A DNA stretch of 64,000 nt, taken from Petasospora fabianii. Taxonomy: Eukaryota; Ascomycota; Saccharomycetes; Phaffomycetales; Wickerhamomycetaceae. Position 1 is the first letter of the stretch. Each line of letters begins with the position of its first letter. The notes under the pieces were generated by a model, which worked only from the letters and a program-made list of their open reading frames with translations, was not told the origin of the DNA and searched no databases. This document shows, in pieces, positions 10,061 through 62,031 of the stretch. The stretch spans positions 124,001-188,000 of the forward strand of contig CP048725.1 of assembly GCA_022641835.1 (NCBI GenBank), in the 5' to 3' direction. Made by a program: the position numbers and the translations under genes.

Positions 10061-11732
10061 CGTTGTGTAATGTGTGCAATTGACGCGTTCTTCTTCTGGT
10101 TTGCACCTTTTGAGGTTGGATGGTGGATTAAAACTATTCAGTTGGGGGGAATCCGTTGAAGCTCCTTTAAAAATGTGGAAGGGGTAGGAGAAAAAGGACC
10201 AATTGAAAGTGTTTCTGAGGTGTTGGTGGTGATTAAACAGGGGAAATAAGTGTTAACGGTGTGTAATAAAGAGGAGGGAGGGACTTTAGTTGGAGAGAAG
10301 TGTTGGTGATGGAGGAAAGTTTGAAGTTTGGCGTCGTGGGAGAAGGGTGAAGAACGCGATGCGTGGTGAATTTTTTGGTTCTTGGGGGCTGTTGATGAGA
10401 CGCGTCGAGGAAGATTTAGCGGCGGAATCTGTGGTAACGTGCTACTGAATGGTGCTTACTTGGACATGAATGTGCACTGGATTGCCACGCGAATCCCTAT
10501 AAAGGGCAACTTGATGGTCCGTTTGGACTAGATCTATCCGCATATGGAAAGAGCGTACCTGTGGGATGTGCCATTGTGCGCTGCTCGAGCGCTCCACTGG
10601 ACGCGTTTGTTTACCTTTCCGTCGCGGCAAAGGGGGTGGAATTTGAACGCGACACTGAAGCGCCACTTAACGCGTCTCTTATGTAAGCAGTCTTTTCGCG
10701 CTATGAGCCGCAGTTAGGCCAATCACCGCTAGTGGTAGTCTCTACGAGGCGCGCGACGCGTAGTTCTATTCATCTGGCTCGAGCAGCTGTTTCACCATGA
10801 CGTGGGCAATAACCTGGGCCAAATTAGCCGATCTCTTGTACATGAAAAGCTGTATATGAATGTGCAACGCGTTGCTTTTTCGCTAATGGTAACTGCGCTA
10901 ATACTAACAGACGGTCAAGGACGCTGAGATGACCCCAGTCGTCTACCATATACTTCCAGAAAATAGTACACTGGAGCACAACCCGTCGAACATGACACTA
11001 TACTCAATCAATTAGACCTTTGTGATTCAGTTAATTGACAAGGAAGATTCCAAGCCGGGAATTCTTACCCATATGCGTAGCGTCAAATGATAAATGAGAC
11101 GCGTTCTCGTGTTCTCGAATCCTCGCATTCTCAAACTATACATTGGCGCACCGATACCCTTCTCGACAAGATACCCATTCCGTGTCTTGAATTCATGGGA
11201 GGTTGTATGCTCAGGATGTTTGAGTGATCTTTGTTTCTTTTGCTATATAAAGTCTAGATCTCAATGTTGTGAGATCCGAATTACGCCCTAAGCGACGCCC
11301 ATAAACTCACATGTGAAACCTGGGCCATTCAGACAAACTATAAAATATAATAAGTATATAATAAATATATATAAATATAGATATTCAATGAAACAAAGAA
11401 TCCAATTGAAATTAACTGCTACTGTATTAGTTTTTTAAAATTCGAATATTCTTTCATTTTTATATATATTCATTTCTTCTATTATGAATGACTTTATATA
11501 TATATAATATATTAGATATTGAAAACAAAAAATAGATCAAACGGAAGTTATTTAAGCAGATTTTGTCAGCTTCTTTCACAGCCGCTTTTGAGAGCACTGG
11601 AGCACTTCTAGATCTACTGTTGTTTTGAGCTTTCTTGCCTTGACAGGAAAGACTAACTACATTTTCAATTCCCAATTTAGAACTGCAAAAAACAAACAAG
11701 AGAATTCATTGATGACATAGAACAGTTGCAAT
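10061..11732. other. Long intergenic region: GIN4 upstream region and AT-rich SMT3 3' flank
   Basis: No convincing gene. The GIN4-proximal 1 kb is moderately GC-rich and dotted with MCB hexamers (separate entry). From about 11335 to 11540 the sequence becomes extremely AT-rich, with runs of TATATA and AAATATA, and forms the 3' flank of SMT3. This AT-rich stretch could hold a poly(A) site or a replication origin; neither can be shown from sequence alone. Confidence 0.6.
10083..11104. promoter_or_regulatory. Cluster of seven MCB (ACGCGT) elements upstream of GIN4
   Basis: The hexamer ACGCGT occurs at 10083, 10400, 10601, 10670, 10756, 10867 and 11099 (start positions). About 0.25 copies would be expected by chance in 1 kb. 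ACGCGT is the Mlu I cell-cycle box bound by MBF (Mbp1-Swi6) in G1/S transcription in yeasts. The nearest copy is 23 bp from the GIN4 start codon, probably in the 5' leader. Regulation of GIN4 is inferred; SMT3 points away from the region. Confidence 0.7.
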
Positions 11733-12106
11733 TTAGAAGGCACCACCGAGCTGTAAAAACTGTTAGTACTCCGTTTCCTTCGATCCCATTCAAAGTGTAA
11801 ACGATAATGACAATAACATACCTGTTCCTGGTGGGCCTCGATAACATCACCATCCTCCAATTCCAACTCATCAGGGGTACTCTCCGGGGTAACTCTAGTA
11901 CCATCGGCAAAGAATCTCAACGATGTGAGAGCCTTACCCTGTCTCTTAGCAAAGGCCTCCATAAGTCTCTTCAATGGGGTTGATCTCTTGATCTTGAAGA
12001 AGATCTCGGACTGACCATCAGAGACCTTCAAGTTGATATGTGTGATAGACTCATCCTTCTGGTCCTCACCAGCGACCTGTGGCTTCTTCTCTTCAGTGTC
12101 GGACAT
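11733..12106 (-). CDS. SMT3: SUMO (Smt3), two exons
   Basis: Exon 1 is 12106..11822 (95 codons) and exon 2 is 11750..11733, giving a 100-residue precursor. The 71-bp intron (11751-11821) has donor GTATGT, branch TACTAAC and acceptor CAG. Smt3 is the small ubiquitin-like modifier conjugated to lysines by Aos1-Uba2 and Ubc9. The beta-grasp body is evident: [44 protein letters not shown] and DVIEAHQEQ. Exon 2 encodes only LGGAF: the conserved di-glycine plus a two-residue tail that must be removed by a Ulp1-type protease. Without splicing the frame runs on with unrelated sequence to a stop at 11657, losing the di-glycine. S. cerevisiae SMT3 has no intron, so this one is unusual in position. Confidence 0.95.
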
Positions 12107-58543: not shown

Positions 58544-59518
58544 ATGAAAAGCGTCGGTCTCTTTACACTTGCTGCAGCCTGTCTAGCTTCTGCTAAGAAT
58601 ATTCTCCTCGCCGATGATGATGGCTGGGCTTCAACTGGTATTCGTGCCACATACCGTGACTTGACCGCTGCAGGACACAACGTATATTTGGTTGCCCCAC
58701 TTGAACAAAGATCCGGATATGGTGGCACTTTCTTCTTCCCTGACTCGTTGACTCTCCACCATGATGATCAGTTTGGTTACAAGAAGGCTGGTGACCCATC
58801 TTGGGGCCACGAGGAGTTTGATGATCACATCTGGTACTTTAACGGTACACCACACGCTTGCATCTCCTTCGCCTTTGACTGGTTGCTTCCACGTTACTTC
58901 GCCAACGTTTCCATTGATCTCGTTGTATCTGGTCCAAACCAAGGTCCTAACGCTGGCAGTCTTTATACCATGTCCGGTACCATGGGAGCTGTTTACAACT
59001 CTGTCAACAGAGGTTACCCTGGTATCGCCTTCTCTGGTTCTAACTTCAACAACACTTTCTTCAAGGATCTTCTGAACGACGATCCACTCAACATTTGGAA
59101 CATCTACTCCAAGAAAGTTGTTGAATTTGTTGATACTCTCTTTGCCTCTCAGGGAGACAACCCACTCCTTTTGCCAAAGGGCACCGGTCTTGATGTGAAC
59201 ATGCCACTCGTTGCTGCTGACTCCAAGACCGGATGCGTTGATCCAAAGTTCGTGTATGCCCGTATGAGTGGTGCTGAGACCAAGACCCCAGGGTTAAATT
59301 ACAATGAAACCACTGGGCTGTTCTCTTATGGGTACGTTCCCGCTCCAGGTATGAACGTTGAATACAACGGTGATCTCTCTCTTCCATCAGAGGATATCGT
59401 TATGAACCATGGGCATTGTGTTTCTGATGTCGCCCTGTTCTCCATTGATTATACGGCTCCGGAGGAGCAGCAGAAACAAGTCCAGGGAATGCTTCAGAGT
59501 TTGCTTGTTGAGATGTGA
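58544..59518 (+). CDS. Secreted SurE-type phosphatase, paralogue 1
   Basis: 324 residues with a signal peptide (1-17, MKSVGLFTLAAACLASA). The SurE fold is clear: the metal-binding Asp pair lies in ILLADDDGWASTGI (Asp25-Asp26), then QRSGYGGTF, then SGPNQGPNAG. The usual Asn before the Asp pair is replaced by Asp. Bacterial SurE is a cytoplasmic nucleotidase or polyphosphatase; a secreted acid phosphatase of this fold (PHO2) is known from Yarrowia lipolytica. In S. cerevisiae the domain appears only fused, in Pby1. N-glycosylation sequons and the signal peptide indicate an extracellular or cell-wall enzyme. A close paralogue lies 1.5 kb downstream, so a tandem duplication is likely. Codon choice is biased as in highly expressed genes. 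Confidence 0.92.
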   Translation: MKSVGLFTLAAACLASAKNILLADDDGWASTGIRATYRDLTAAGHNVYLVAPLEQRSGYGGTFFFPDSLTLHHDDQFGYKKAGDPSWGHEEFDDHIWYFNGTPHACISFAFDWLLPRYFANVSIDLVVSGPNQGPNAGSLYTMSGTMGAVYNSVNRGYPGIAFSGSNFNNTFFKDLLNDDPLNIWNIYSKKVVEFVDTLFASQGDNPLLLPKGTGLDVNMPLVAADSKTGCVDPKFVYARMSGAETKTPGLNYNETTGLFSYGYVPAPGMNVEYNGDLSLPSEDIVMNHGHCVSDVALFSIDYTAPEEQQKQVQGMLQSLLVEM

Positions 59519-61059: not shown

Positions 61060-62031
61060 ATGAAGTTCACATTCGCATTGGCCACCATCTGTGCTTCCAC
61101 AATTGCTACTGCTAAGAACATCTTGCTTACCAATGATGACGGTTGGGCGTCCACTGGTATTCGTGCCACTTACCGTGAGTTGACCGCTGCTGGTCACAAC
61201 GTTTACTTAGTCGCCCCAGTTGAGCAGAGATCAGGGTACGGTGGTACTTTCATGTTCACATACACTTCCACTTTGCTCCACGATGATCAGTTCCACTACA
61301 AGAAGGAAGGTGATCCAGCTTGGGGACACGAAGAGTCTGATGACCACATCTGGTACTTCAACGGTACTCCATCTGCATCTGTTGCATTCGCCTTTGACTA
61401 CCTCTTGCCAACTTACTTTGCCAATGCCTCCATTGACCTTGTTGTGGCTGGTCCTAACCAGGGTTTGAACCAGGACTCTCTCTTTACCCTCTCGGGAACC
61501 ATTGGTGCCACTTACAACGCTGTTTACAGAGGATACCCAGCCATTGCCTTCTCTGGATCTAACTCCAACAACTCCTTCTTTAAGGATTCTCTCAATGATA
61601 ACCCGGATGATGTTCAGAACATCTACGCTTCTAAGGTTGTTGAGCTTGTTGACACTTTGTTCGCAGCACAAGGTGATAACCCAGTTCTCCTCCCAAGAGG
61701 TACCGGATTGAACGTCAACTTCCCAAAGGTTGCTTCTGACTCCACCACAGGGTGTACCGATCCAAAGTACACATTCGCCCGTCTCTCCGGTCCGGAAGTC
61801 CTCATTTCCTCCTTGAAGTTCAACTCCTCCACTGGTCTCTTTACATTCTCCTATGGCAGCGCCATTGGCTCCAACGTCATTTACCACGGTGACGCCGCCC
61901 TCCCAGATGAGAACCAAGTCATCAACCACTTGGACTGTACCTCGGACGTTGCTCTGTTCTCCGTTGATTACACTGCCAACATTGAGCAGGAGAATGAGGT
62001 CAGAGGCATGATCGGCTCCATCCTTTCCTAA
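61060..62031 (+). CDS. Secreted SurE-type phosphatase, paralogue 2
   Basis: 323 residues with a signal peptide (about 1-18, MKFTFALATICASTIATA). It has the canonical SurE metal site ILLTNDDGWASTGI (Asn25, Asp26, Asp27), then QRSGYGGTF and AGPNQGLNQDS. It aligns along its whole length with paralogue 1, including the start of the mature protein and the C-terminal SDVALFSIDYTA/SDVALFSVDYTA. The two probably arose by tandem duplication, with the tRNA gene now between them. The promoter has a TATA box, CACGTG and CACGTT, hinting at phosphate-starvation control by a Pho4-like factor; this is inference. Substrate not determined. Confidence 0.93.
   Translation: MKFTFALATICASTIATAKNILLTNDDGWASTGIRATYRELTAAGHNVYLVAPVEQRSGYGGTFMFTYTSTLLHDDQFHYKKEGDPAWGHEESDDHIWYFNGTPSASVAFAFDYLLPTYFANASIDLVVAGPNQGLNQDSLFTLSGTIGATYNAVYRGYPAIAFSGSNSNNSFFKDSLNDNPDDVQNIYASKVVELVDTLFAAQGDNPVLLPRGTGLNVNFPKVASDSTTGCTDPKYTFARLSGPEVLISSLKFNSSTGLFTFSYGSAIGSNVIYHGDAALPDENQVINHLDCTSDVALFSVDYTANIEQENEVRGMIGSILS

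What the first reader, a model, noticed from the sequence alone, without database searches (positions are those of the whole stretch)
11733..12106. An intron separates SUMO from its conjugating di-glycine
The SMT3 intron (11751-11821) lies after codon 95, and the last exon encodes only LGGAF. Splicing is therefore required to make any conjugatable SUMO. Retention keeps the frame open for some 50 further codons without a di-glycine, giving a tailed, non-conjugatable product. S. cerevisiae SMT3 has no intron, so this lineage could in principle tune its SUMO supply by splicing. The intron and the di-glycine exon are seen directly; the regulatory idea is inference.
Basis: partly seen in the sequence, partly recalled or inferred. 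Interest (0 to 1): 0.7.

Follow-up and report, generated by a model that had tools for sequence, protein, structure and literature searches.

The report
Yeast SUMO gene with terminal intron
A yeast gene for the protein tag SUMO is interrupted by a short, ordinary-looking intron just before the two glycines the tag needs to be attached to other proteins, so this copy works only after splicing, but nothing in the sequence shows that the yeast uses this as a switch, and it has a second, uninterrupted SUMO-like gene.

Summary
On the minus strand SMT3 has a 95-codon exon, a 71-nt phase-0 intron (11751-11821; GTATGT, TACTAAC, CAG) and a last exon encoding only LGGAF. Retention gives a 149-residue protein without the di-glycine. 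Among 45 introns sampled from this genome it is the most 3'-terminal (5 codons left), where 27 of 45 lie in the first tenth of their frame. The regulatory idea has little support in the sequence: the splice signals are strong, their spacing is typical, and 11 of 45 sampled introns are stop-free, as shuffles predict for this one (24%). Another modifier gene, RUB1, carries four introns, so needing splicing before the GG is not peculiar to SMT3. Best reading: a constitutively spliced, probably old intron in an unusual place. Non-conjugatable SUMO made by splicing is already known in human cells (PMC9911741). No RNA data and no related yeast genome could be examined.

The parts
11822..12106 (-). 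SMT3 exon 1, codons 1-95 (MSDTEE...EAHQEQ), SUMO domain
   Evidence: translation; Pfam Rad60-SLD 3.1e-15; SMT3 chain 1l2n E 2.2e-35
11751..11821 (-). phase-0 intron, 71 nt (3n+2), no in-frame stop
   Evidence: pattern 84 against 16 reversed control in the genome
11816..11821 (-). 5' splice site GTATGT
   Evidence: sequence
11762..11768 (-). branch site TACTAAC, followed by 11 nt to the end of the intron
   Evidence: 11 nt is the median of 71 candidate introns
11751..11753 (-). 3' splice site CAG
   Evidence: sequence
11733..11750 (-). SMT3 exon 2: L-G-G-A-F-stop, carries the di-glycine
11657..11821 (-). frame read if the intron is retained: 54 codons plus stop, no di-glycine
   Evidence: tail below pLDDT 50 in the model
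11683..11700 (-). possible alternative 3' splice site CTTGTTTGTTTTTTGCAG in the 3' UTR; use would give ...HQEQF-stop, a SUMO without di-glycine; no evidence that it is used

Best explanation
This is the SMT3 (SUMO) gene of a budding yeast with one ordinary spliceosomal intron at an unusual place, between codon 95 and the five-codon exon that encodes the di-glycine. Shown: gene structure, signals, and the products predicted with and without splicing. Inferred: the intron is removed constitutively and efficiently; the LGGAF precursor is then trimmed after GG by the Ulp1 orthologue; the intron is a relic that this lineage kept, as RUB1 has four; unspliced message gives at most a little GG-less, tailed SUMO that cannot be conjugated.
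For: GTATGT, TACTAAC and CAG, with 11 nt from branch site to end (the median of 71 candidate introns) and length 71 within 44-87; GTATGT is the commonest 5' site of hemiascomycetes according to PMC2911113 (passage). Stop-free on retention is common: 11 of 45 introns in frames of at least 90 codons. 54 open codons is only mildly unusual (3.6%); the tail's hydropathy is ordinary and its model is below pLDDT 50. RUB1 needs four splices to reach its GG. A Ulp1 orthologue is present (E 3.6e-49 to the ULP1 chain 1euv). The exon-intron-exon fold is not special (z -1.0).
Against: No RNA data, so efficient splicing is inferred. The intron sample was chosen by the same exact motifs, so it cannot show how strong these signals are compared with other introns of the genome. 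The position is an outlier: fewest downstream codons of 45, and of the 6 introns in the last quarter of their frame it is the only one without a stop inside. The age of the intron was not tested.
Confidence: 0.78

Rival explanations
1. Regulated retention tunes conjugatable SUMO: under stress or in some growth phase the unspliced mRNA accumulates and encodes a 149-residue, non-conjugatable SUMO that lowers supply or competes for SUMO-binding partners.
For: The retained frame runs past the normal stop for 54 codons, so no premature stop inside the intron invites decay; the GG exon is isolated; human SUMO1 and SUMO2 have non-conjugatable splice forms whose abundance changes with stress (PMC9911741, abstract); S. 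cerevisiae PTC7 makes a second protein from a stop-free retained intron (PMC3597508, passages); retention of UBC9, the SUMO E2, changes with age in S. cerevisiae (PMC10897858, passages).
Against: Strong splice signals and typical geometry; the PTC7 intron is 3n, this one is 3n+2; no special fold; tail hydropathy like shuffled sequence.
Confidence: 0.08
2. Alternative 3' splice-site choice, not retention, makes a GG-less form: skipping the CAG at 11751 for the uridine-rich TTTGTTTTTTGCAG ending at 11683 gives a SUMO that stops one residue after codon 95 (HQEQF).
For: Strong-looking pyrimidine tract and CAG 80 nt after the branch A, leading straight into a stop.
Against: Yeast splicing usually takes the first usable AG after the branch site (recalled), here 12 nt away; of the 15 YAG sites listed between intron and 11319 this one was picked after the fact.
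Confidence: 0.05
3. The terminal intron was gained recently in this lineage and is neutral, rather than old. (This concerns the age only and overlaps with the best explanation in what the intron does now.)
For: S. cerevisiae SMT3 has none (recalled); late introns are rare in the sample; PMC8476143 infers secondary intron gain in four Saccharomycotina yeasts (passage).
Against: The same paper finds a general bias to loss across fungi, Saccharomycotina included (passages); RUB1 of this genome has four introns; most filamentous fungi are reported to have one intron in SMT3 (PMC9866417, passage; position not given).
Confidence: 0.2

Closest known systems
Human SUMO1/2/3 splice variants, the SUMO alphas (PMC9911741; abstract, outline and one passage seen)
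   Same: Splicing decides whether a SUMO gene yields a conjugatable protein; SUMO1-alpha and SUMO2-alpha are non-conjugatable and variant levels respond to stress.
   Different: There the alternative forms were measured; here one intron lies exactly before the GG exon and no variant transcript has been seen.
S. cerevisiae PTC7 (PMC3597508; passages seen)
   Same: A stop-free intron can be translated if retained.
   Different: PTC7's intron is 3n and the retained part adds a membrane helix near the N terminus, with both products functional; here 3n+2, at the C terminus, and the retained frame loses the functional end.
Fungal SMT3 genes with introns (PMC9866417, PMC11111931; passages seen)
   Same: Intron-bearing SUMO genes: most filamentous fungi two exons and one intron; Cryphonectria three exons and two introns.
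   Different: Intron positions are not given in the passages seen, so it is unknown whether any lies before the GG.
RUB1-like gene of the same genome (C3, L091; named from its sequence)
   Same: A ubiquitin-like modifier whose GG exon is reached only by splicing.
   Different: Four introns; the last exon encodes 28 residues, not five.

Membership tests
SUMO (SMT3) family | SUMO domain | tested here: met
   Rad60-SLD 3.1e-15, over the cut-off; SMT3 chain 1l2n E 2.2e-35
SUMO (SMT3) family | C-terminal di-glycine followed by a short tail to be cut off | tested here: met
   QEQLGG-AF after splicing; GG aligned with SMT3 GG
SUMO (SMT3) family | Ulp1-type processing protease in the same genome | tested here: met
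   C2:1509585-1510082, E 3.6e-49 to ULP1 chain 1euv; 3 of 4 C48 matches over the Pfam cut-off
SUMO (SMT3) family | conjugation to target proteins | not testable with these tools
   no protein data
Spliceosomal yeast intron | 5' site, branch site, 3' site, and a restored reading frame | tested here: met
Retained intron making a second functional protein (PTC7 kind) | intron length a multiple of three and free of stops | tested here: not met
   71 nt = 3n+2, though stop-free
Retained intron making a second functional protein (PTC7 kind) | both mRNA forms present and translated | not testable with these tools
   no RNA or protein data
Retained intron making a second functional protein (PTC7 kind) | open retained frame conserved among relatives | not testable with these tools
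   G000 has no relatives in the collection; the scan of genome contigs gave 2 loci, both an Smt3 sequence with linker, read as vector contamination; viral contigs gave none
C2 homologue as a second SUMO | SUMO domain and GG in register with known SUMO | tested here: met
   Rad60-SLD 1e-11; SUMO-1 chain 2las 3.7e-11 with GG under GG
C2 homologue as a second SUMO | expressed, processed and conjugated | not testable with these tools
   no expression data

The most novel reading that the evidence does not exclude
The yeast runs two SUMO pools under different rules. The main Smt3 can be switched at the level of splicing, giving a non-conjugatable SUMO-like protein, while the divergent uninterrupted SUMO (ending NDGGC) escapes that control. 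As SUMO is itself needed for full splicing of two tested introns in Magnaporthe (PMC9767378, passages), SUMO and the spliceosome could form a feedback loop, and a fall in splicing would shift conjugation from one SUMO to the other.
Probability: 0.05. Interest if true: 0.75.

Novelty: new member of a known kind. Interest (0 to 1): 0.33.

Why it matters
If splicing gated SUMO supply, a yeast would offer a simple, testable link between spliceosome activity and SUMO conjugation. As the evidence stands, the gene is a clean case of an essential C-terminal motif placed behind a terminal intron, and a warning for annotation: an intron-blind reading gives a 149-residue SUMO without di-glycine. The second SUMO homologue may be the more interesting lead, since the budding yeasts I know of have one SUMO (recalled, not searched systematically).

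Tried and rejected
Tried without result: SUMO scan of viral contigs (17 stretches, none a relative); scan of genome contigs (171 stretches, 2 relatives, both an Smt3 sequence followed by a Gly-Ser linker, read as vector contamination and useless for intron position); rRNA search to place the species (searches gave no answer). Placing the clade by solved structures failed: the outputs name molecules, not organisms, and the best chains are, as I recall, from S. cerevisiae and Lachancea. CTG reads as leucine at conserved sites, judged by eye. Ten literature searches listed at most 20 of up to 262 papers each; among those listed I saw none on an intron before the SUMO di-glycine or on two SUMO genes in a budding yeast. 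The library lacks most subscription papers, so this is weak evidence of absence. Rejected: that the retained tail is a designed membrane anchor (19-residue hydropathy maximum 1.45, reached by 55% of 353 stop-free single-base shuffles); that the AG ending at 11760 is a usable 3' site (too near the branch site; its use would add FLQ and keep the GG).

Rows dropped before counts: of 71 candidate introns 5 had no ATG frame and 21 had a best frame under 90 codons; 45 remain. Two of the 71 are nested candidates with one branch site (L073). The sample holds only introns with exact GTATGT and TACTAAC and a CAG; RUB1's introns 2-4 do not fit it. Frames were chosen as the longest, without gene models.

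Full report
Observation. The reverse strand of 12106-11733 encodes SMT3. Exon 1 is 285 nt and encodes 95 residues ending EAHQEQ; the 71-nt intron runs from 11821 to 11751; exon 2 is CTCGGTGGTGCCTTCTAA, LGGAF and stop. The spliced 100-residue protein matches the solved SMT3 chain 1l2n (E 2.2e-35; S. cerevisiae, recalled), and its GG lies where that chain has GG. If the intron is kept, the frame stays open to 11660: a 149-residue protein with 54 new residues and no di-glycine.

Is the intron real? It has GTATGT, TACTAAC and CAG. This ordered pattern occurs 84 times in the 12.3-Mb genome, overlapping matches included, against 16 for the pattern read backwards. Over 71 candidate introns in 69 fetched stretches the median length is 61 (44-87) and the median distance from TACTAAC to the end is 11 (6-25); the SMT3 values are 71 and 11. 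GTATGT is the commonest 5' site in hemiascomycetes (PMC2911113, passage). It is a strong, typical intron, which speaks for efficient splicing; but the sample was chosen by the same motifs, so it cannot rank signal strength within this genome.

Is its place unusual? Yes. Of 71 candidates, 45 could be placed in reading frames of at least 90 codons (5 had no ATG frame and 21 had shorter frames). Of these 45, 27 lie in the first tenth of the frame, 4 beyond 85%, and SMT3 has the fewest codons after the intron (5; next 11). The next one, in a 93-residue protein that I take by eye for the Pol III subunit RPC11, also puts a cysteine-bearing C-terminal end (CTKCGHQWREN) behind its intron, so SMT3 is an extreme of a small class and not alone. 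Of the 6 introns in the last quarter of their frames SMT3 alone has no stop inside the intron; but 11 of 45 introns overall have none, and shuffles give 24% for a stop-free intron and 3.6% for 54 open codons. This was noticed after the fact and is weak.

Other ubiquitin-like genes of the genome. A Rad60-SLD search gave 13 matches at E up to 1 and a ubiquitin search 22. A RUB1-like gene (named from its sequence; its ubiquitin-family match is split in two) has four short introns of 67, 59, 52 and 54 nt and splices to a 78-residue protein ending LRGGCL (splice sites set by eye). Polyubiquitin has an intron after codon 16 and the ubiquitin fusion on C6 one inside the third codon (sites by eye), while the ubiquitin fusion on C8 has an open frame throughout. 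Needing splicing before the GG is thus not special to SMT3.

A second SUMO. C2:1372120-1372401 (minus) holds a 93-codon uninterrupted frame plus stop, MPPRATSPPTEDD...VKSKNDGGC. It passes the Rad60-SLD cut-off (44.9 bits, 1e-11), finds the SUMO-1 chain 2las at 3.7e-11 with GG under GG and the SMT3 chain 1l2n at 1.9e-8, and is 33% identical to this Smt3 over 70 residues. The gene upstream of it on the same strand encodes 671 residues whose C-terminal part weakly resembles it (28.5 bits; no Pfam match up to E 1). Whether this protein is made, processed or conjugated is unknown; its residues before GG (KSKND) differ from the QEQ(T/I/L) seen in the other SUMOs aligned here.

Mechanism. Shown: the gene layout. 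From established knowledge: GG is needed for activation by the E1 enzyme and is exposed by Ulp1; a Ulp1 orthologue is present, as are two other C48 proteins over the Pfam cut-off. Inferred: constitutive splicing; unspliced message, if translated, gives a SUMO domain with a tail. In an AlphaFold model from a two-sequence alignment the SUMO part is mostly at pLDDT 70-90 and residues 96-149 are below 50; the model draws two helices in the tail (101-113, 124-148), but at that confidence they mean little. Such a product cannot be conjugated and is probably short-lived (inference). Tail hydropathy is no higher than in shuffles and the local RNA fold is ordinary (z -1.0).

Comparison with what is known. 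Splicing that makes non-conjugatable SUMO is known for human SUMO1 and SUMO2, with stress-dependent levels (PMC9911741, abstract, outline and one passage). Introns in fungal SMT3 are common (PMC9866417 and PMC11111931, passages). In the S. cerevisiae ageing study PMC10897858 (passages) retention of UBC9 peaks early in ageing, so changing retention inside the SUMO pathway of a yeast has been seen. In Magnaporthe, loss of SMT3 lowers splicing of two tested introns through the SR protein MoSrp1 (PMC9767378, passages), which leaves room for a feedback loop. In Yarrowia 90-94% of introns carry an in-frame stop (PMC2911113, passages); in the present sample 34 of 45 do. PTC7, the yeast model of a functional retained intron, has a 3n intron without stops (PMC3597508, passages); SMT3 here is 3n+2. 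On the age of the intron the literature cuts both ways: a bias to loss across fungi, but secondary gain inferred in four Saccharomycotina yeasts (PMC8476143, passages).

Verdict. A correct and well-read observation of an unusual gene structure; the regulatory idea is possible but has no support in the sequence beyond the absence of a stop. The age of the intron and its retention remain open for lack of relatives and RNA.

Noticed in passing
G000:C2:1372120-1372401 minus (L002:1495-1776; L090:4821-5102): A second, uninterrupted, divergent SUMO homologue of 93 residues ending NDGGC; budding yeasts are thought to have one SUMO (recalled).
   Followed up: partly
L090:5600-7615 minus: The gene next to the second SUMO, same strand, encodes 671 residues with a weakly SUMO-like C-terminal part (28.5 bits to it) and no Pfam match up to E 1.
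   Followed up: partly
G000:C3:776700-777300 (L091): RUB1-like gene of 78 codons with four introns of 52-67 nt, two with branch site GCTAAC.
   Followed up: yes
L090:4871-4876 minus: The second SUMO gene contains a GTATGT inside its coding sequence before the di-glycine; I saw no convincing branch site and acceptor after it, so probably chance.
   Followed up: no
window 58544-59518 and 61060-62031: Two similar neighbouring genes of SurE-like look (DDGWASTGIRATYR in both), an apparent local duplication.
   Followed up: no
NZ_MSIF01000054.1 and NZ_QBUK01000018.1 (L004, L005): Contigs of identical length (6623) in two unrelated bacterial genomes carry an Smt3 sequence followed by a Gly-Ser linker: looks like the same vector contamination.
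   Followed up: partly
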